Origin: Bacteroidota bacterium
GTDB lineage: Bacteria > Bacteroidota > Bacteroidia > Sphingobacteriales > Sphingobacteriaceae
Length of the DNA stretch: 34,371 bases
Assembly (NCBI GenBank): GCA_013286325.1
Contig: JABDFZ010000024.1
Location: 1-34,371, forward strand
Reading direction: 5' to 3'
Part shown: one piece after another, positions 3,731-34,371 of the stretch
How the letters are laid out: each line of letters starts with the position of its first letter
Numbering within the stretch: position 1 is the stretch's first letter
Translations under genes and position numbers: made by a program
The notes under the pieces: generated by a model
Databases searched by the model: none
Told to the model about the DNA's origin: nothing
What the model saw: only the letters and a program-made list of their open reading frames with translations

Positions 3731-4393
3731 TTAGCTGATCTTTGTAACTGTTGATGAGCCTTTATTATCATTAGTTATGGTAGGATTGCCCTCATATTTT
3801 ACAACCGATTTTCCTGTTGTATGTAAAGTCATGGTAGTAGAAACATTTACTTGATAGGTGCCTGAACCTGATGTTTGGGTGGTAAAGCTTTGTACAGGGA
3901 AACCAAGCGCGTTAAGTGTGCCCTGCCCACTAACGTTAATGCTGTGTGAAGTAGCCGATCCTGTTAAATTGAAGGTACTTTGTCCGCTGATATTACTGTT
4001 AACGCTTGTTGCAGTAAGGCTTAAAGTGATGGTATCATGCCCGGATGATTGAATAGAGATAGTCTCGGCAGTTAAAGTTCCGGATACGGTATCCTGTCCT
4101 GCTACCTGCAGGCTTGTAAGTGTACCCACACCTATTGTAATTGATATTGAATCAGACCCACAAAGGTTATCAGTGGTAGAAATTGAAAGCGTGCCATTAC
4201 TTACGTTTGTAGCAATGTATTGCATCAGGTTGTCATCGGCAGTAATGCTAACTAAGTAAGAACTATCCTGGGTTAGCGTAACGGTGTAGTTGCCCAAAAT
4301 ATTCACTTTGGTAAAGCTTGCCATTTGACGTTTTACGGTAGTTGAGTTGCCAGAACCTTCAATGCAACCCGATTTGGATGAGGTACTTTTCAT
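3731..4393 (-). CDS. Head-GIN (DUF2807) protein lacking a signal peptide
   Basis: The 220-residue protein is a paralog of the products at 5603 and 6461. All share a C-x-x-GSG start, F(T/S)(K/R)(V/I)N, QDSS, ITAD-(D/T)-NL, and repeated beta-strand units rich in Ser, Thr and Gly, as expected for the DUF2807 head-GIN beta-solenoid. Unlike them it begins MKSTSSKSGCIEGSG. The initiating MK is followed directly by the mature-domain Cys, with no hydrophobic stretch or lipobox. Upstream DNA is a terminator hairpin plus a leader resembling those of the paralogs, so no missed upstream exon-like segment or frameshifted signal sequence is visible. It is therefore predicted to stay in the cytoplasm or to be a decaying copy. 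The molecular role of the family is unknown; envelope or surface association is usual. Confidence 0.8.
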   Translation of the reverse strand: MKSTSSKSGCIEGSGNSTTVKRQMASFTKVNILGNYTVTLTQDSSYLVSITADDNLMQYIATNVSNGTLSISTTDNLCGSDSISITIGVGTLTSLQVAGQDTVSGTLTAETISIQSSGHDTITLSLTATSVNSNISGQSTFNLTGSATSHSINVSGQGTLNALGFPVQSFTTQTSGSGTYQVNVSTTMTLHTTGKSVVKYEGNPTITNDNKGSSTVTKIS

Positions 4394-4433
4394 AATATTA
4401 TGTGATTAAAGTTTAAGTTGGCCAAAAATAAAA

Positions 4434-4458
4434 AAAGTTTTCCCAATAAGAAAACTTT
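4434..4458 (-). terminator. Intrinsic terminator of the cytochrome c gene
   Basis: On the minus strand the 9-base stem AAAGTTTTC / GAAAACTTT (4450-4458 with 4434-4442, 7-base loop) is followed by a T-rich run, 40 bases beyond the cytochrome stop at 4498. This is a good Rho-independent terminator and also separates the downstream DUF2807 gene at 3731 from the cytochrome transcript. Confidence 0.75.
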
Positions 4459-4497
4459 AACTTAAAAATAACATTGCTTAGTTTAACCTGTAATAAT

Positions 4498-5496
4498 TCA
4501 CTTAGAACTTTCAGGACCAGCAAAGCTATTTGCACGAAATTTAATCACTTTATTGTTAATTGGTTTCACTGTTTTTAGGTAAGCGAACATCGCTTTCAGG
4601 TCGTTTTCACTCATTCTGCTGTAACCATACCAGGGCATAATTGTCTGCACATCAGCCGCCGATACTTTAACCGCTTTTGATTTATCATTAAACGCTTTAA
4701 ATCTTTGTACAAAAACATCAGTTGTCCAGCTGCCTATTCCGGTGGTTTTATCCGGAGTAATATTAGCAGATACTATTGTATTAAAGCCCATCCTGAATTC
4801 GCGACCTCCGGCAAATTCCATTCCTGCCAACATTTTACCGTTATTATTCTGTGTATGGCAGTCCATACATGCGGCTGCATTAACCAGGTATGCACCATAC
4901 TTAACGGTATCAGTAGTATTTGGTAATGTACCCAAGGTTGCCTTTTGCGGAAATGTGTGCACCAGTATATTAAGCGGAAAATTGTAGGTTGCCTTAGGAT
5001 AGCTGGTATTAACCGGCTTAAGAGTACGCAGGTATGCAATAATGGCATAAACATCCTCCTTGCTCATTTTTGAGTAGGATGGCCAGGGCATCAGTGGAAA
5101 TATAGCATTGCCATTTTTGCGTACCCCACAGGTAATAGCACGAAAAAGCTCACCGTCAGTCCATCCCTTTAAATTATACGGCGTAATATTAGGAACATGA
5201 ACGCTGCCCGGGAAACTCACTTTTTTATCAAAAAGTTCACCGCCCCCGCCGAGGCGGTTGTCTGATATAGGCCCGGCGAATTTAGACCAATCACGTTGCG
5301 AATGGCAATCGTTACAAAGAGCTACATTATTAGCAAGGTAATTACCCCTGGCAATGAGTTGAGGAGTCGCTTTTATGCTGATATTTTCAGCTTTACCCAC
5401 ATCAGGTAATGCCAAAGTTATATAGGATACAGCACAGATAACGATAAGTACAATTGCAATTACAGCATATAAAAGTACTTTCTTAAGTTTCTTCAT
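4498..5496 (-). CDS. Membrane-anchored diheme cytochrome c
   Basis: This is an electron carrier facing the periplasm. The 332-residue protein has an N-terminal uncleaved-looking transmembrane helix (about residues 7-29, VLLYAVIAIVLIVICAV). Two cytochrome c domains follow, with heme-binding motifs CNDCH (61-65) and CMDCH (210-214). Each domain carries a likely axial methionine in an (L/I)MPW motif (Met136 and Met287) and a following SKMSKED or SRMSEND turn, which shows the domains arose by duplication. The arrangement resembles cytochrome subunits of membrane dehydrogenases, but no dehydrogenase gene is adjacent, so its electron donor is not known. It sits between two DUF2807 paralogs and has its own terminator. 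Confidence 0.88.
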   Translation of the reverse strand: MKKLKKVLLYAVIAIVLIVICAVSYITLALPDVGKAENISIKATPQLIARGNYLANNVALCNDCHSQRDWSKFAGPISDNRLGGGGELFDKKVSFPGSVHVPNITPYNLKGWTDGELFRAITCGVRKNGNAIFPLMPWPSYSKMSKEDVYAIIAYLRTLKPVNTSYPKATYNFPLNILVHTFPQKATLGTLPNTTDTVKYGAYLVNAAACMDCHTQNNNGKMLAGMEFAGGREFRMGFNTIVSANITPDKTTGIGSWTTDVFVQRFKAFNDKSKAVKVSAADVQTIMPWYGYSRMSENDLKAMFAYLKTVKPINNKVIKFRANSFAGPESSK

Positions 5497-5509
5497 AAAT
5501 AGTGGGTTG

Positions 5510-5587
5510 GGTTGATTGAGTTACTAATATAAATAAAAATCTTTTGAAAGATTATCAACTTATTTATCTGAACCAACTCAATCAACC
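5510..5587. repeat. 13-bp inverted repeat upstream of the cytochrome c gene
   Basis: GGTTGATTGAGTT at 5510-5522 is perfectly inverted at 5575-5587. An inner stem AATCTTT/AAAGATT lies near 5538-5553. A similar GTTGATTGGATTGATTG phrase occurs at 26857-26873 after susE. The element occupies the gap between the DUF2807 gene ending at 5603 and the cytochrome start at 5496 and could end the upstream transcript. Confidence 0.5.
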
Positions 5588-5602
5588 GGCCCAACTATGC
5601 TT

Positions 5603-6343
5603 TTATTTCGCTTTTTGAACTATTGAAATACCTGAATGCTGGTTTGTAATTTTTGGATCACCCATATATTTTACATCAGATGTTCCGGATGTATGTACAT
5701 CTAATGTATTTACAGCATTAACCTGAAAGTTTCCTACCCCTGAAGTATGAGTAGTATAAGCGCCAACAACAAAATTGTAGGCTTTAAGGGTACCGGTCCC
5801 GCTGACAGTAATATCATGTGATGCAGCTTTTCCTGTTAAATTGATGGTACCTTTACCGCTAATGGTGCTGGTAAGACTAGTTGCATTAAGAGTCATGGTA
5901 ACATTATCAGCGCCTGATAACTGAAAAGCAAAACTCTGTGCATTTATTGCACTATCGGCAGTTATTACTTCTTTTCCTGAAGCTATTACAGCAGCCAGAT
6001 TACCTACACCAATATTGATATTTATAGTACTGGTGCTGCAAATACTTTGCTGGTTTGAAATAACAAGGGTACCGTTAGTTACAGTAGTTTTAATGTACTG
6101 AAACAAGTTGGTATCAGCAGTAATGGTTACACCATAAGAGCTGTCCTGTTTTAAAACTACATTGTAATCGCCCTGAAGGTTCACTTTAGTAAAAGTACCA
6201 GGGGTACGTTTTTGGGATGCTGAAGTTCCCGAACCTTTAATGCAGTTAGAACCGCCATTGTTGTTGTTGTTACCGCATGAGAATGCTCCGGCAAGCATAA
6301 AGCCTGCAGCTGTTGCCAGAATGGCTAATTGAATACGTTTCAT
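5603..6343 (-). CDS. Head-GIN (DUF2807) lipoprotein
   Basis: The 246-residue product starts with a lipoprotein signal peptide (MKRIQLAILATAAGFMLAGAFSC, lipobox Cys at 23), followed by an Asn/Gly linker (GNNNNNGGSN) and then the C-x-x-GSG start of the DUF2807 domain. Its body is a run of short beta-strand repeats with recurring SG, GTL and TTSG/HTSG elements, typical of the head-GIN beta-solenoid. It is expected in the outer membrane or periplasm. It is a paralog of the products at 3731 and 6461. Terminator hairpins lie both upstream (6389-6414) and possibly downstream, so it seems to be transcribed alone. Function within the envelope is not known. Confidence 0.85.
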   Translation of the reverse strand: MKRIQLAILATAAGFMLAGAFSCGNNNNNGGSNCIKGSGTSASQKRTPGTFTKVNLQGDYNVVLKQDSSYGVTITADTNLFQYIKTTVTNGTLVISNQQSICSTSTININIGVGNLAAVIASGKEVITADSAINAQSFAFQLSGADNVTMTLNATSLTSTISGKGTINLTGKAASHDITVSGTGTLKAYNFVVGAYTTHTSGVGNFQVNAVNTLDVHTSGTSDVKYMGDPKITNQHSGISIVQKAK

Positions 6344-6388
6344 ATTAATTAATTTTGATAAAGTTTTAGTTACATCAAAATTAAAAAA

Positions 6389-6414
6389 AAGCTATAACAA
6401 TTGCTATAGCTTTA
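6389..6414 (-). terminator. Intrinsic terminator after the 6461 lipoprotein gene
   Basis: On the minus strand the stem AAAGCTATA/TATAGCTTT (6406-6414 with 6389-6397) is followed by eight or more T residues. It starts 47 bases beyond the stop codon at 6461. This is a clear Rho-independent terminator. Confidence 0.8.
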
Positions 6415-6460
6415 AATAAAATATTTGTTAAGTTTTTTTCTGAAACGGGTTAGCAAGTAC

Positions 6461-7180
6461 TCAGTTCACCTTTTCGACAGACGAAGCCCCTGATTTATCG
6501 TTGGTAACACTTGGATTACCTTTATATCTTACTTCTGATGCACCGCTCGAATGTACATTTAAAGTATTTAAAACATTTACCTCGCTATGTCCCATGCCCG
6601 AAGTCTGGATATCACACTTGCTTACAACGAAATCAAAAGCATGAACCTTACCACTGCCACTTGTTTCAATATCATGCGAAGTGGCCTGGCCTCTCAGGTT
6701 TAGTTCTGTAACGCCGCTTCCATGAGTAGTTACGTTAGCTGCATTTAAATCCATCGTAATTTTGGTAACGCCAGCTAACCTAAGATGTAAATCGCTTGTA
6801 ATTATTTTACCATCGCCTTCTACCTCAACTGCCCCCGATGCTTTTAATTCTTCCAGGTTACGGATCCCGATATTTACAAGCATTTCTTTTGATTTACATA
6901 TATTTCTTTTTGTGTAAATACGCAATTTGCCGTCACTTACCTCTGTTTTAATATATTTAAGCAGGTTATCGTCAGCAGTTATTTTTACCGACATAGAGCT
7001 ATCCTGCTTTATCACTACTTTAAATGCCCCTGAAATATTTATGCGGCTAAAATCACCTCCTTTACGGTCTTCAGATTTTACATTACCAGAGCCATGCACG
7101 CAGTTAAACCTGCAAGACGAAAAACCACCAAGAGTAATCCCGGCAATTAGTAACAATATTAGTAAATGTATCTTTTTCAT
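6461..7180 (-). CDS. Head-GIN (DUF2807) lipoprotein
   Basis: The 239-residue protein has a lipoprotein signal peptide ending in GGFSSC (Cys23) and the same C-x-x-GSG, DFSRINISGAF, QDSS and ITADDNL elements as its tandem neighbours. The rest consists of repeated short strands with GSG, TSG and SSG turns, consistent with a DUF2807 beta-solenoid. It is more basic and less Asn-rich than the copy at 5603. It is bounded by terminator hairpins on both sides. A TGTAAC box at 7216-7221 lies 36 bases before the start and could be the -35 element of an ECF-type promoter (TGTAAC-N17-AGTC), though this copy of the motif is weaker than those at 7957, 11323 and 13355. No biochemical role is established. Confidence 0.85.
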   Translation of the reverse strand: MKKIHLLILLLIAGITLGGFSSCRFNCVHGSGNVKSEDRKGGDFSRINISGAFKVVIKQDSSMSVKITADDNLLKYIKTEVSDGKLRIYTKRNICKSKEMLVNIGIRNLEELKASGAVEVEGDGKIITSDLHLRLAGVTKITMDLNAANVTTHGSGVTELNLRGQATSHDIETSGSGKVHAFDFVVSKCDIQTSGMGHSEVNVLNTLNVHSSGASEVRYKGNPSVTNDKSGASSVEKVN

Positions 7181-7232
7181 GTTTTTATGTTTTGGACTAT
7201 TAATAATTGGGTTAAGTTACATCAAAAATAAA

Positions 7233-7259
7233 AAAAGCTGTCATATTGTGGCAGCTTTT
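7233..7259 (-). terminator. Intrinsic terminator after the 7291 gene
   Basis: The stem AAAAGCTG/CAGCTTTT (7252-7259 with 7233-7240, extended inward by a G-U and two further pairs) is followed on the minus strand by a long T-run. It lies about 32 bases past the stop at 7291. Confidence 0.8.
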
Positions 7260-7290
7260 AAATATAAGCTATGTTTACAAACCTTTCGGT

Positions 7291-7899
7291 TTAAAGATCA
7301 GCCAGATCATCTGCTTTGTAAGCAACAGGTGCTAAAGTTTGTTTTTTTACTGTGTGAGCTGCAACCAGGTCTTTATGATTAACGTTTTCTTCGAAGTTGT
7401 AATTTAAAGAGTATTCGTTTACGGTTCCGCTCAAGTTTGCTTTTGCTGCATCGTTTACAGTTACATCAGCGCTATAAGCATCTAAGTTTAGTTTAGCAGA
7501 AGCATTGTTGTGCAGGTCAACTTCAAACTCAATCTTTGAAATATTTCCGAATGATTTTACTTCTGAATTATCAAAAGCAGAGATTGAACGCAGATCATTT
7601 GCTGTAACCCATACAACCAGTTTATCTGTTTTGTATGATGAGATCCTTAACACACCATTTTTGCTTTGAACCAAAGCGCTTTCGCTATAATATTTGTTGT
7701 AAACTTTTACCTGGTCGGTTGCACCGTCAGAGATATAAAGTTCAACGTTTCCGTGTACTTCTATTTTGTTGATTGCGCTGATATCAGTTAAAATTGTATA
7801 TGTATTATCTGCATTTTTTGCAGTGGCGGCATAAGTTGAATTTGTTGCTCCCAATGCTACAACGAGCATTGTGAAGATGGTTATGATTAGAGTTTTCAT
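7291..7899 (-). CDS. Secreted head-GIN-like (DUF2807) protein, paralog 1
   Basis: The 202-residue product begins MKTLIITIFTMLVVALGATNSTYA-ATA, a Sec signal peptide with probable cleavage after TYA; no lipobox is present. The mature part contains ISAINKIEVHGNVELYISD, VYNKYYSESALVQSKNG and VVWVTANDLRSISAFDN, followed by a DLHNNASAKLNLDAYSADV repeat region, i.e. a short beta-solenoid of the DUF2807 type. It is closely related to the products at 10670 and 12692. I chose the ATG at 7899 rather than an in-frame ATG at 7923, because the signal peptide starts there and the paralogs align at that Met. An ECF-like promoter lies 58 bases upstream. The role is unknown, probably envelope-related. Confidence 0.82.
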   Translation of the reverse strand: MKTLIITIFTMLVVALGATNSTYAATAKNADNTYTILTDISAINKIEVHGNVELYISDGATDQVKVYNKYYSESALVQSKNGVLRISSYKTDKLVVWVTANDLRSISAFDNSEVKSFGNISKIEFEVDLHNNASAKLNLDAYSADVTVNDAAKANLSGTVNEYSLNYNFEENVNHKDLVAAHTVKKQTLAPVAYKADDLADL

Positions 7900-7956
7900 G
7901 ATATTTATATGTTTGATTGTCAATTAATTATTTCTAAATTTCAAATACACTAATAA

Positions 7957-10669: not shown

Positions 10670-11263
10670 TTAAAAACCTGCTAATTCAGCGGTTGTGTTT
10701 GCTTTGTTTTCGCTAAGGTGGGTAGCTTTAAAGTTGTTGCTATTTACGTATGTTAATACGTCCCTGCGTAAGTTAAACTCTGTTGATGTACCGCTCAGGT
10801 TAGCTTTTGCACGGTCCTGTACAGTTAAGTTAGTGCTGTAAGCATCGAGGTTTAAATTTGCTGAAGCATTGTCGTGCAAGTCAACATCAAATTCGATTTT
10901 TGAGATGTTACCAAAAGATTTTATGTCGGCATTGTCATAAGCAGAGATTGAACGCAGGTCATTTGCACTTACCCAAACTACTAATTTTTCAGCACTGTAT
11001 GAGGTGATGCGCAATACGCCATTTTTGCTTTGCACTAATGCACTTTCGCTATAGTATTTGTTATAAACCTTCACCTGGTCAGATGATGCATCAGATACAT
11101 AAAGCTCAACATTTCCATGAACTTCAATTTTATTGATTGCGCTGATGTCGGTTAATACAGTGAAAGTATTATCGTTGTTTTTTGCAGTGGCTGCATATGT
11201 TGAATTTGCTATTCCTGACACTAAAACTAGGGCTGAGAATATGGTTAAGATTGCGGTTTTCAT
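10670..11263 (-). CDS. Secreted head-GIN-like (DUF2807) protein, paralog 2
   Basis: The 197-residue product has a Sec signal peptide (MKTAILTIFSALVLVSGIANSTYA) with cleavage likely after TYA. The mature domain shares most of its length with paralogs at 7291 and 12692, including ISAINKIEVHGNVELYVSD, DQVKVYNKYYSESALVQSKNG, LVVWVSANDLRSISAYDN and DLHDNASANLNLDAYSTNLTVQDRAKANLSG. The C-terminal tail (FKATHLSENKANTTAELAGF) is shared with the 12692 copy but not the 7291 copy. The coding sequence, the 3' flank and the upstream region therefore show different closest relatives. Same ECF-like promoter as its paralogs at 11323-11348. Function unknown. Confidence 0.83.
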   Translation of the reverse strand: MKTAILTIFSALVLVSGIANSTYAATAKNNDNTFTVLTDISAINKIEVHGNVELYVSDASSDQVKVYNKYYSESALVQSKNGVLRITSYSAEKLVVWVSANDLRSISAYDNADIKSFGNISKIEFDVDLHDNASANLNLDAYSTNLTVQDRAKANLSGTSTEFNLRRDVLTYVNSNNFKATHLSENKANTTAELAGF

Positions 11264-12691: not shown

Positions 12692-13288
12692 TTACATACC
12701 GATCAATTCGTTATTGATTTGAGTAGTTGTATTCGATTTGTTTTCGCTAAGGCGTACAGCTTTAAAGTTGTTGCTGTTTACAATTGCTAAAACATCGCTA
12801 TTTAAGTTAAACTCAGTTGATGTACCGCTCAGGTTAGCTTTAGCACGATCCTGTACAGTTAAGTTGGTGCTGTAAGCATCCAGGTTTAATTTAGCAGATG
12901 CATTGTCATGCAGTTCAACATTGAATTCAATTTTCGAGATGTTGCCGAATGATTTAATGTCAGCATTATCATAAGCAGAAATTGAACGAAGGTCATTTGC
13001 ACTTACCCAGACTACTAATTTTTCATTGCTGTATGATGTGATGCGCAAAACACCATTTGAGCTTTGTACTAAAGCGCTTTCAGCGTAGTATTTGTTGTAA
13101 ACTTTCACCTGGTCTGATGATGCATCAGAAACATACAATTCAACGTTACCATGAACTTCAATTTTGTTAATTGCGGTGATGTCGTTTAAAACGGTATAAT
13201 TATTATCTTTTAATGAAGCGGCATAAGTTGTTGTTAATCCGAACATTACAACAAACATTGTGATTACGGACAAAAATTTGGTTTTCAT
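12692..13288 (-). CDS. Secreted head-GIN-like (DUF2807) protein, paralog 3
   Basis: The 198-residue product starts MKTKFLSVITMFVVMFGLTTTYA-ASL, a Sec signal peptide. The mature domain is highly similar to the 10670 copy (VHGNVELYVSDASSDQVKVY, LVVWVSANDLRSISAYDN, LNLDAYSTNLTVQDRAKANL). The tail shows LSENKSNTTTQINNELIGM. I chose the ATG at 13288. An in-frame ATG at 13348 would add 20 hydrophilic residues before the signal peptide and would lie at the predicted transcription start, just past the -10 box at 13355. Flanking terminator and promoter resemble those of the 10670 copy, so the pair probably arose by a recent duplication including flanks. Function unknown. Confidence 0.83.
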   Translation of the reverse strand: MKTKFLSVITMFVVMFGLTTTYAASLKDNNYTVLNDITAINKIEVHGNVELYVSDASSDQVKVYNKYYAESALVQSSNGVLRITSYSNEKLVVWVSANDLRSISAYDNADIKSFGNISKIEFNVELHDNASAKLNLDAYSTNLTVQDRAKANLSGTSTEFNLNSDVLAIVNSNNFKAVRLSENKSNTTTQINNELIGM

Positions 13289-13354
13289 TGTTTTATTTTT
13301 TATTATTGTGGTTCTTAATTTATTGTATTTTTCTATTTTTAAATACAACCATAA

Positions 13355-26919: not shown

Positions 26920-28530
26920 TTAAAGGGTATCGGCAGATTTGATCAGTTTGCAAAGCAGGGCCATTTTTATTCTTCCATAAATCAGCAGTTGAAAATCATC
27001 ATAAGCATTTTCCAGTTCTTCAGGATCAAATTGCTCTGCTACTTTTCCCATCAGCTCCCCGATGGTCATAGTTCTTTTTAGGAGCTTGAGTATGTACCTA
27101 TCCAGCTCATCGATACTTGCTACCGAATAGCGCTGCGCATTACATTCAGGAACAATGGCAAAATAATTTTTTAATTGATATGGCACTTGCAGTTTTTGGA
27201 ACTTCTTTTTCAGCGGCAATTCCTGCTCGTCCAATATACTCCAGTTATACTTTGAACTAATGATTTCAAATTTTGAAACAACTAATTTCTTTTCAGTGAT
27301 TTTATCTTTATTGCCAAAAATAAATTCAAGATAATTTGCGCCGAGCACGTCTCTTTGATATAAGTAATCCTTATTAATCAGTAAAAATTTCGAGTTACAG
27401 ATCCCCCCTATTTCTTCTTCAAACCTGGTGACATCTTTTTTTAACCGTTTTTCAATTACTTTCGGAATGTTCAGCTCATTTTCGCCATTCAGGAAATCGT
27501 CAACCACCCTCCTTCTCCAGTTAACAGCTATGTGATTTATTTCAGCGTCTGAATCAACCTGTTGCAGGTCCGGTTGCTTCAGAAAATGATATCTGCTTAA
27601 TAAGTCATATTCAGTTTTTGATGGCAGGTGTGAATAATGATCTTGTTCAAGCTTAATGTTATTATCATAACACAATTGTATGATGCGATAATAATACTCC
27701 GGAAAATCATGACGGAGGCGGCTTGCCATGTCGGCACAGATTTGCTTATGTCTTTTAAATGTTCCTAATAAGTGCAGGTAATCCCGTTCATAAGGCACTT
27801 CGCAAAAATTGCCAAAGCCACTATAGCCATAATCTTCATAAATTTTATCGAAGAGTACAGAAATCTTCTTCTCCTGATGTTTTGACAAGCAATAAAAAAG
27901 ATACTGTTCAAAAAAGATATTAAAGTCCGAAACGTTTATTTTATGTAGCTGGTTGGTGTTCTTTTCTATAAAATAAAAAGCCTTTGAAGTGTATTCTTTA
28001 AAAAAAGCAATATCGCTTCCGCCAAAAATACCGGCATTGTAGGCCTCAATATTCCCCTGCTTTTTTCTTTCCGCAATTATTTCCTCAGGAAAGTATGTTA
28101 ATTCATTCTCCAGCGAACGCATAATATTTTCATAATATCCGGTGGCTGTTTCTTTGTTTTGTGTTATAAGTCCCTGACTTAAAAGTTCATCATCAAATCT
28201 TTTCCAGATAAAAACATCACCGTCAATATGCAGGAATGGCTCTTCTTGCTCGGAGTATACTTGTATTTTGGGTATTGCCCATAAATCGGGATGGTAGTTA
28301 TTAATTTTATCAAGGCTACATACTACATTAGTATACGGGAGCTGTAATTTATCAATTAATATCCGTGCAGAAACTGAATCTGTGTATAGGGTTAACTCGT
28401 CGTGAAATTTTCTTAATTGCAGGCTGCTTAAGGCCCAGCCCATCAAATGATATTCAGGTGCGAGCCAGCCAGCGTTGGACGATAAAAAACTTTTTTGATT
28501 ACGGGACCAACAACTTTGGACAATTTGCAT
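26920..28530 (-). CDS. Glycosyltransferase-like protein with C-terminal RRE-like segment (putative RiPP enzyme)
   Basis: The 536-residue protein has no signal peptide and should be cytoplasmic. Its N-terminal half resembles GT-A nucleotide-sugar enzymes: MGWALSSLQLRKFHDELTLY at 30-49, the DxD metal site in FLHIDGDVFIW (Asp103, Asp105), and NAGIFGG at 165-171, a motif typical of family-8-like glycosyltransferases. I believe this corresponds to the DUF6734 group. The last 70 residues (about 467-536; SIDELDRYILKLLKRTMTIG, then a helical stretch with FDPEELENAYDDFQLLIYGR) look like a PqqD/RRE winged-helix that recognises RiPP leaders. The gene is directly downstream of a double-glycine precursor with only a hairpin between. 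I infer that it glycosylates the precursor; this is not proven. Plain surface-polysaccharide glycosyltransferase is the main alternative. Confidence 0.68.
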   Translation of the reverse strand: MQIVQSCWSRNQKSFLSSNAGWLAPEYHLMGWALSSLQLRKFHDELTLYTDSVSARILIDKLQLPYTNVVCSLDKINNYHPDLWAIPKIQVYSEQEEPFLHIDGDVFIWKRFDDELLSQGLITQNKETATGYYENIMRSLENELTYFPEEIIAERKKQGNIEAYNAGIFGGSDIAFFKEYTSKAFYFIEKNTNQLHKINVSDFNIFFEQYLFYCLSKHQEKKISVLFDKIYEDYGYSGFGNFCEVPYERDYLHLLGTFKRHKQICADMASRLRHDFPEYYYRIIQLCYDNNIKLEQDHYSHLPSKTEYDLLSRYHFLKQPDLQQVDSDAEINHIAVNWRRRVVDDFLNGENELNIPKVIEKRLKKDVTRFEEEIGGICNSKFLLINKDYLYQRDVLGANYLEFIFGNKDKITEKKLVVSKFEIISSKYNWSILDEQELPLKKKFQKLQVPYQLKNYFAIVPECNAQRYSVASIDELDRYILKLLKRTMTIGELMGKVAEQFDPEELENAYDDFQLLIYGRIKMALLCKLIKSADTL

Positions 28531-28555
28531 TAAGCGACAAATTTAAAATTGTCAG

Positions 28556-28592
28556 ATAGCACACCACCCTTAAATAAGGTATGGTGTGCTAT
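28556..28592 (-). terminator. Hairpin between precursor and enzyme (attenuator-like)
   Basis: ATAGCACACCA (28556-28566) is perfectly inverted at 28582-28592, with an inner CCTT/AAGG pair in the loop. It lies between the precursor stop at 28678 and the enzyme start at 28530. There is no strong T-run on the minus strand, so it probably lowers or processes read-through rather than ending transcription fully. Confidence 0.6.
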
Positions 28593-28677
28593 TTTAACAT
28601 GATAAGTTTTAATGATTTTATGCTGGATAGATACCTGGTATTGAATTCTACTAAAAATCCAGGCCATTATTAATAAA

Positions 28678-28935
28678 TTAGCAATCTTGTGCAGGTGGGT
28701 TTGGAGTATATCCAATTAATGTACAAGTTGTACCAGCGCCATATCTCGGACCCGGACCACAGCACCAGGCAGTTGTCCACGGAGAATATCCGGGGGCTGA
28801 ACAAGAGTAAACCGGGGTACCCGAAGGGCAGCTAAAACCACCACCGCCACCACCGCTACCGCCTCTGATCTGTTTCATCTCATCTCTACGCAGCATTTCT
28901 TTTAACCGGGTAAATTTTGCAGGATTTGTTTTCAT
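28678..28935 (-). CDS. Putative RiPP precursor with double-glycine leader
   Basis: The 85-residue peptide has a leader ending in the classic pattern LKEMLRRDEMKQIRGG (Gly25-Gly26), as in the GG-type precursor families of Bacteroidota (for example the TIGR04149-like group). The tail of 59 residues starts with a Gly-rich run, is rich in Ser, Thr, Pro and Gly, and has six Cys: 36, 45, 58, 59, 71 and 85 (the final residue). Cleavage after GG by a C39-type peptidase/ABC exporter is expected; none is in the window. Promoter elements at 28966-28994 and the following hairpin and enzyme make a compact unit. No other precursor copy was found nearby. Activity and structure are unknown. Confidence 0.75.
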   Translation of the reverse strand: MKTNPAKFTRLKEMLRRDEMKQIRGGSGGGGGGFSCPSGTPVYSCSAPGYSPWTTAWCCGPGPRYGAGTTCTLIGYTPNPPAQDC

Positions 28936-28965
28936 ATGATTTTGATTTTAAGTTTAAAGGTTAAG

Positions 28966-28994
28966 TAAATATATAAACTTTTATCAATTTTCAA
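28966..28994 (-). promoter_or_regulatory. Bacteroidota-type promoter of the RiPP precursor
   Basis: On the minus strand TTG (28992-28994), 18 bases, TATATTTA (28966-28973) is one mismatch from the TTG-N19-TAnnTTTG consensus. It starts transcription about 25 bases before the precursor ATG. Confidence 0.55.
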
Positions 28995-29098
28995 AAGAAA
29001 ACGCAATATAATTTTAACCCTGGTTTAGGGTAATTTAACAGCTTAGAAAATCGGTGATTTTAATTGCGTAGCAATCCGTTGTTGCCACAAGCTATTAC

Positions 29099-33830: not shown

Positions 33831-34371
33831 TTATTTTTTGTTGAGCTTGGCTAAGTATTTATTTTTCAATTCATCTAATGCTGCATCATATCCTTTTTGA
33901 TCAATAAACGCCTCTGGCCGATAATTGTCACTGGGCTTATGTTTTTGATGAAGGTTAAACTGGCTTGCATGTGAGGAAAGCCAGATATCAAACTTCAGTT
34001 TTTTCATTTCATTAAATGTATAAGCATAATCTTCCGTCAGATTAGGATAAGTGGGCATACCCGGTTTAGCTTCATCCAGGATAGATGGCATGTTTGCTAT
34101 TAATACACGGTACGAACGGTTTTGATCCTTAACATTAAACAGAAAACTACACGCACCTTTTGTATGCCCCGGATGATGAAGCACAGTGATCTGCATATCA
34201 CCTAATTTAACTATATCACGGTCGTGTAGTAACCTATCAGCTTTAACAGGTTCAAATGAGCTGCCTTTCCCACCAAATAAATAGTCTGAATTTCCGCCAT
34301 CAGCTAATACCTGTGCATCTTTTTCATCAATCATCATTTTGGCGCCTGTAATTTTCTTTACTTCGGCCATT
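33831..34371 (-). CDS. Subclass B3-like metallo-beta-lactamase (5' end beyond window)
   Basis: The C-terminal 179 or so residues match subclass B3 metallo-beta-lactamases: the AEVKKITGAKMMIDEKDAQV stretch, HPGHTKGACSF (zinc-ligand histidine), SSHASQFNLHQK (last zinc ligand and adjacent loop), and the C-terminal FIDQKGYDAALDELKNKYLA helix. The HxHxDH metal site would lie further upstream on the minus strand, outside the window. The ATG at 34370 is therefore probably an internal methionine. Such genes may confer beta-lactam resistance or have another hydrolytic role; activity is not proven. It is convergent with the histidine kinase gene, with only 20 bases between the stops and no obvious terminator. 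Confidence 0.82.
   Translation of the reverse strand, partial: MAEVKKITGAKMMIDEKDAQVLADGGNSDYLFGGKGSSFEPVKADRLLHDRDIVKLGDMQITVLHHPGHTKGACSFLFNVKDQNRSYRVLIANMPSILDEAKPGMPTYPNLTEDYAYTFNEMKKLKFDIWLSSHASQFNLHQKHKPSDNYRPEAFIDQKGYDAALDELKNKYLAKLNKK

What the first reader, a model, noticed from the sequence alone, without database searches (positions are those of the whole stretch)
26920..28994. Candidate glycosylated RiPP system: GG-leader peptide plus GT-A/RRE-like enzyme
An 85-residue precursor with an EMKQIRGG double-glycine leader and a six-Cys, Gly/Pro/Ser/Thr-rich tail is followed by a cytoplasmic 536-residue protein. That protein combines a DxD and an NAGIFGG motif (glycosyltransferase GT-A) with a C-terminal segment that looks like a PqqD/RRE leader-binding domain. 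Known GG-precursor clusters in Bacteroidota usually have radical-SAM enzymes; none is present here. An attached sugar on Cys, Ser or Thr would make it a glycocin-like product. The pairing of this enzyme type with such a leader is not one I know as characterised.
Basis: partly seen in the sequence, partly recalled or inferred. Interest (0 to 1): 0.85.

Follow-up and report, generated by a model that had tools for sequence, protein, structure and literature searches.

The report
Leader-guided peptide glycosyltransferase and its peptide
Next to a gene for a small cysteine-rich peptide with a double-glycine leader sits an enzyme gene, a pairing that recurs across the Bacteroidota, and the enzyme is predicted to grip the leader with one domain and likely attach a sugar to the peptide with the other, which would make this an uncharacterised family of sugar-decorated bacterial peptides.

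The parts
28678..28935 (-). Precursor peptide gene, 85 aa
   Evidence: ORF; 4 homologues besides itself with E <= 1.4e-28, aligned; only classical GG-leader ORF of 160 small ORFs in the window
28858..28935 (-). Leader, residues 1-26, ending ..MLRRDEMKQIRGG (double-glycine type)
   Evidence: a leader profile built from 15 leaders of other loci hits it at E 6.9e-5
28681..28857 (-). Core, residues 27-85: SGGGGGG.. start, six Cys, rich in Gly/Pro/Ser/Thr/Tyr
   Evidence: the six Cys and Ser27 invariant in 5 of 5 aligned sequences
26920..28530 (-). DUF6734 enzyme, 536 aa, predicted RRE-guided glycosyltransferase
   Evidence: PF20508 E 1.9e-113; model mean pLDDT 90.4, pTM 0.89
27673..28530 (-). GT-A domain, residues 1-286
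28216..28224 (-). DGD (DxD) motif, residues 103-105
   Evidence: both Asp 78 of 78
28018..28038 (-). NAGIFGG motif, residues 165-171
   Evidence: N 77 of 78; G167, G170, G171 78 of 78
27754..27774 (-). HxxGxxK motif, residues 253-259 (metal/phosphate motif of GT8 enzymes, recalled)
   Evidence: H and K 78 of 78, G 72 of 78
27310..27672 (-). Linker, residues 287-407, mostly helical, variable in length among relatives
26923..27309 (-). RRE-like domain, residues 408-536
28556..28592 (-). Strong RNA hairpin between precursor and enzyme, candidate attenuator or processing site
   Evidence: the 147-nt gap folds at -36.3 kcal/mol, z -4.2 against shuffles; not listed by the terminator scan
28964..28996 (-). 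Candidate Bacteroidota-type promoter (TTTTG ... TATATTTA), read by eye, consensus recalled
   Evidence: sequence printed; untested

Best explanation
The cassette encodes a double-glycine-leader peptide and a DUF6734 protein that is predicted to be a GT-A glycosyltransferase with a C-terminal leader-binding (RRE) domain and that likely attaches one or more sugars, most probably O-linked to Ser or Thr, to the peptide's core. Steps: (1) the precursor is made [shown only as a conserved gene]; (2) the RRE-like domain would clamp the leader (conserved L-12, M-7, I-4) as an added strand [predicted from fold]; (3) the GT-A domain would bind a nucleotide sugar through metal at DxD/His253 and move the sugar to a core side chain [inferred from fold and invariant residues]; (4) a C39-peptidase ABC transporter would cut after the double glycine and export the core, where its six Cys would form disulfides [inferred; this genome's C39 transporters lie on other contigs]. 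The product's role is open; a secreted inter-bacterial or signalling peptide is the likeliest guess.
Confidence: 0.72

Rival explanations
1. The same enzyme and precursor, but the sugar is put on Cys (S-linked), making a true glycocin-like S-glycopeptide.
For: The core is Cys-rich; known glycocin enzymes S-glycosylate Cys, and one glycocin precursor with eight Cys carries two S-sugars plus three disulfides (OrgA, passages of PMC12457901), so an even Cys count does not exclude it.
Against: 5 of 57 cores have no Cys (first 150 residues counted; one, in L014, may be a fragment of a longer protein) and 44 of 52 with Cys have an even number; disulfide-forming VKOR-C39 or TlpA neighbours suggest the Cys are paired. 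The same paper says earlier characterised glycocins all have five Cys.
Confidence: 0.12
2. The enzyme glycosylates something else (a carrier, lipid or surface glycan) and the peptide is an unmodified C39-exported bacteriocin or pheromone that happens to be neighbouring.
For: GT-A enzymes mostly act on glycans (recalled); 41 of 78 loci show no leader ORF; leader peptides also occur beside C39 transporters without DUF6734, in 10 of 39 control loci.
Against: RRE-like domain; transporter-free enzyme-peptide pairs in six Mucilaginibacter genomes; DUF6734-C39 fusions; LanB/LanC neighbours of the short forms.
Confidence: 0.1
3. DUF6734 is a GT-A-fold protein that moves a group other than a whole sugar, or is only a scaffold.
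For: Fold similarity is remote: 10-15% identity in the rows, no sequence-level match to solved GTs.
Against: Asp, Asp, His and Lys of the expected donor site are invariant in 78 of 78.
Confidence: 0.06

Closest known systems
Glycocins (sublancin, glycocin F, thermoglycocin; SunS-type enzymes)
   Same: GG-type leader, small Cys-rich core, glycosyltransferase, and in many relatives a C39 transporter and thiol-disulfide proteins
   Different: DUF6734 instead of a GT2 (PF00535, recalled) enzyme; fused RRE-like domain; mostly even Cys counts; Bacteroidota; here no transporter next door
RRE-glycosyltransferase fusions flagged by RRE-Finder (PMC7470986; PMC12710340 names PF00535)
   Same: RRE joined to a glycosyltransferase
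   Different: the passages seen name PF00535 or no family; DUF6734/PF20508 is named in no paper of the library searched; here precursors and cluster logic are shown across many loci
TIGR04149 / leader_Chryseo GG-leader peptides of Bacteroidota
   Same: same style of leader (matches below cut-off)
   Different: TIGR04149 is titled rSAM-modified; a radical SAM protein was hit in only 2 of 77 DUF6734 loci, with one query
GT8 glycosyltransferases (glycogenin, LgtC)
   Same: GT-A fold, DxD, HxxGxxK (motif recalled)
   Different: no sequence-level match; extra linker and RRE-like domain
Class I lanthipeptide dehydratases LanB (MibB, MadB)
   Same: a region of MibB (188-287) is the top structural match of the C-terminal domain
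   Different: no dehydratase here; in most short DUF6734 cases a LanC or LanB sits nearby and the RRE-like domain is absent

Membership tests
RRE-containing RiPP enzyme | winged-helix domain structurally like leader-bound RREs | tested here: met
RRE-containing RiPP enzyme | binds a precursor leader | not testable with these tools
   needs a binding assay
RRE-containing RiPP enzyme | precursor gene nearby | tested here: met
   window pair; 37 of 78 named loci; 11 of the 12 genus loci fetched, out of 18 other genus genomes with a match
Glycocin | GT2/SunS-family glycosyltransferase | tested here: not met
   Pfam gives only DUF6734 for the enzyme; no GT2 match among the 27 members of A1 at E <= 1
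Glycocin | double-glycine leader and Cys-rich core | tested here: met
Glycocin | C39 transporter in the cluster | tested here: not met
   none hit in the window; three C39 transporters on other contigs of the genome
Glycocin | O- or S-linked sugar on the core | not testable with these tools
   needs mass spectrometry
GT-A glycosyltransferase, GT8-like | GT-A fold with DxD and a conserved His for the metal | tested here: met
   (by predicted fold)
GT-A glycosyltransferase, GT8-like | sequence-level membership of GT8 | tested here: inconclusive
   profile search against PDB sequences finds no GT
TIGR04149 rSAM-modified RiPP | leader over the model's cut-off and a radical SAM partner | tested here: not met
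   7.6 bits against 25; no rSAM hit in the window with one query
Class I lanthipeptide | LanB and LanC in the cluster | tested here: not met
   no hit in the window

The most novel reading that the evidence does not exclude
DUF6734 is a Bacteroidota-wide leader-guided O-glycosyltransferase family: one GG-leader tag routes very different cargo (disulfide-rich minipeptides, Cys-free Ser/Thr/Gly-rich peptides, lanthipeptide precursors, and whole toxins with lysozyme or lipase-like domains) to a transferase that sugars the segment after the cleavage site before C39 export. The leader reader would be interchangeable: a fused RRE, a fused C39 peptidase domain, or a separate LanB.
Probability: 0.35. 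Interest if true: 0.88.

Novelty: new variant of a known kind. Interest (0 to 1): 0.73.

Why it matters
Few glycosylated RiPPs are known: glycocins with GT2 enzymes (Bacillota, recalled) and some actinobacterial lanthipeptides such as cacaoidin (PMC8068269, seen only as a search listing). This would add an unrelated enzyme family, in another phylum, with its own leader-reading domain, widening natural-product mining and giving a leader-programmable tool for sugaring peptides. It gives a testable function to a family of unknown function (497 homologues at E <= 0.001 in one search) and suggests that some peptides labelled rSAM-modified are something else.

Tried and rejected
Sequence-only routes: profile searches against PDB sequences found neither the GT nor the RRE; one of 27 members touched PqqD at E 0.017. 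Ser at +1 as a GT-specific mark: 27 of 57 cores against 3 of 13 leader peptides in control C39 loci without DUF6734; no significance claimed. Mantel test for leader-RRE co-variation: the GT domain correlates as well, so it does not single out the RRE. VKOR in own genome: none (genome 61% complete). Promoter/terminator scan: no better than shuffles. Literature: DUF6734, PF20508, DUF6625 and PF20330 occur in no held paper; the other searches were made; subscription papers are mostly not held.

Limits of counts: the 78 loci are the distinct ones among the best 80 of 99 relatives found with two peptide patterns. L025 (enzyme split over two ORFs) was left out of the 77-locus alignment. Several loci end near the gene; Flavobacterium loci are partly redundant. 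'Short' and 'long' enzymes were split at 320 aa, not by a tested RRE. The 57 cores are a non-redundant subset of 68, picked by a motif, so the motif positions are conserved by construction; cores were counted over their first 150 residues. L032's leader protein was missed by that filter and seen by eye. first gave 43 loci with a C39 transporter, but that count included plain ABC transporters; one search recounted 39 of 77 with an N-terminal C39 match. In one search the 8 short copies include one fragment of the split L025 gene; without it 5 of 7 have LanB/LanC within 4 kb. One Foldseek job, two VIA-align jobs and one homologue search were left unused.

Full report
What is there. On the minus strand, an 85-aa double-glycine-leader peptide (28678-28935) lies 147 nt upstream of a 536-aa protein (26920-28530). 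The gap holds a strong hairpin at 28556-28592 (z -4.2 for the gap), compatible with making more peptide than enzyme, though the terminator scan does not list it. The neighbours are a predicted citrate synthase upstream and a SusC/SusD-type operon on the other strand (names by eye). No transporter, oxidoreductase, LanB/LanC or radical SAM protein was hit in the window. The genome (61% complete) has three C39-peptidase ABC transporters on other contigs and no VKOR match. Its genus is Mucilaginibacter by inference: G430 contig C8, in the same genus, has the length of the Mucilaginibacter sp. L196 contig.

The pairing. In 78 loci from named Bacteroidota genomes, an a-priori double-glycine motif was found in 38 same-strand small ORFs within 4 kb (24 of 685 at 0-2 kb, 14 of 603 at 2-4 kb), in 2 of 1897 at 4-10 kb, and in 1 of 4138 opposite-strand ORFs outside the enzyme; shuffled same-strand ORFs within 4 kb gave a mean of 0.15. 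25 of 78 loci have one; 37 of 78 with a relaxed motif and 4.5 kb. Of the 24 full-length loci most like the window's, 18 have one. In the genus, 19 of 149 genomes hold the enzyme, the own genome included. I fetched 12 of the 18 others; 11 carry a GG-leader peptide within about 2.5 kb, and the contig of the twelfth ends just after the gene. Six of these (L152, L153, L154, L155, L157, L159) are pairs without a C39 transporter in the 13-14 kb read; four lie near tsaD and two of those also near recA (names by eye). Their seven peptides are alike (QTYC...IGC.PxYC...HG..LYCA), with dN/dS 0.05-0.29 in the 8 of 21 pairs where dS could be computed; the other 13 gave no usable dS. The window's own precursor has four homologues with all six Cys and Ser27 invariant, though three read AG or GA for GG. 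Two of them, P0123 and P0124, list longest contigs of the same length as enzyme homologues P0003 and P0006, so probably the same contigs.

The cluster logic. Within up to 10 kb, a C39-ABC transporter occurs in 39 of 77 loci, HlyD in 33, VKOR-C39 in 32, TlpA-type thioredoxin in 15, radical SAM (one query) in 2; representatives were identified by Pfam. For background, 37 of 149 whole genomes of the class hold any C39 peptidase. Four enzymes of 646-659 aa (L069, L071, L076, L085) are DUF6734 fused to a C-terminal C39 peptidase domain: nature has joined the transferase to the very domain that reads GG leaders. Six DUF6734 proteins of 291-306 aa lack the C-terminal extension. LanC lies in the locus of 4 of them, against 2 of 71 longer ones (p 1.6e-4); LanC was confirmed by Pfam in L050, L064 and L090, LanB in L064 and L090. 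A seventh short copy, in L037, also sits beside LanC. LanB carries its own RRE (established knowledge), so this is what one expects if the C-terminal domain's job is leader capture. Exceptions: L062 and L065 have no LanB/LanC; L036 has LanB and LanC with longer copies; L030 and L049 have LanB 6-9 kb away.

Acceptor. Among 57 non-redundant cores, Ser is present in 56, Cys absent in 5, and 44 of 52 Cys-containing cores have an even count (p 4e-7; one per locus 32 of 39). Characterised glycocins had five Cys before a seven- and an eight-Cys precursor were described; six Cys are disulfide-bonded and the spare ones are sugared (PMC12457901, passages). Even counts therefore favour O-linkage, but two S-sugars would also leave an even number. 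Tyr is possible too, since glycogenin sugars Tyr (recalled).

Known or new. RRE-Finder (PMC7470986, passages) reported RRE-glycosyltransferase fusions; the passages seen describe no product. A 2025 paper (PMC12710340, passages) names glycosyltransferases PF00535 and defines RREs as three strands then three helices. A Bacteroidales mining paper (PMC10352776, passages and section 13) lists glycosyltransferases in two clusters, one with LanC and radical SAM, one with LanM. None of what I saw of them names DUF6734, and full-text searches for DUF6734, PF20508, DUF6625 and PF20330 found no paper. The family and its precursors therefore look undescribed in that library, while the concept is partly anticipated: a new variant of a known kind.

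Shown: genes, conservation, neighbourhoods, fusions, invariant residues. Predicted: both folds. Inferred: leader capture, sugar transfer, O-linkage, export in trans, bioactivity.

Noticed in passing
L043 (11657-13006), L017 (11656-13005), L025, L032, L014: Downstream of DUF6734 in these Flavobacterium-group loci, 396-460 aa proteins carry the same kind of GG leader and a Gly/Ser/Thr-rich stretch (in L014 leader and rest are separate ORFs of 46 and 272 aa). L043 ends in a phage lysozyme domain PF00959 (E 4.5e-12); L032 and L014 have Lipase_3 at E 0.06-0.08 (below cut-off) and L017 a GHSLGG by eye only. A roughly 200-aa ORF follows, then C39 transporter and HlyD in L014, L017, L032, L043. Looks like GG-leader polymorphic toxins with a glycosyltransferase.
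   Followed up: partly
L069, L071, L076 (Flavobacterium), L085 (Bacteroidales MAG): DUF6734 fused to a C-terminal C39 peptidase domain, 646-659 aa.
   Followed up: partly
L032:9178-9990, also L037, L038, L040-L042, L073: DUF6625 (PF20330), a second family of unknown function, sits beside DUF6734 in 7 of 77 loci.
   Followed up: no
L150 (own genome, contig C12): A separate cluster with LanB (Pfam), three radical-SAM-like proteins, a C39 transporter and a short HlyD-like ORF (by eye).
   Followed up: no
L149 (own genome, contig C107): C39 transporter beside four tandem related 277-303 aa proteins (SINSG motif) of unknown function; possibly another modification system.
   Followed up: no
window 3731-7923, 10670-11263, 12692-13348: Several similar secreted-looking paralogues (INKIEVHGN in three of them; possibly DUF2807, recalled) on the minus strand.
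   Followed up: no
window 33831-34370: ORF at the window end resembling a metallo-beta-lactamase-fold hydrolase (HHPGHTKGACSF), by eye.
   Followed up: no
NCBIfam TIGR04149: DUF6734-linked leaders score up to 21.9 bits against the cut-off of 25 of this 'rSAM-modified RiPP' model (8 peptides scanned), so its title may mislead for relatives.
   Followed up: partly
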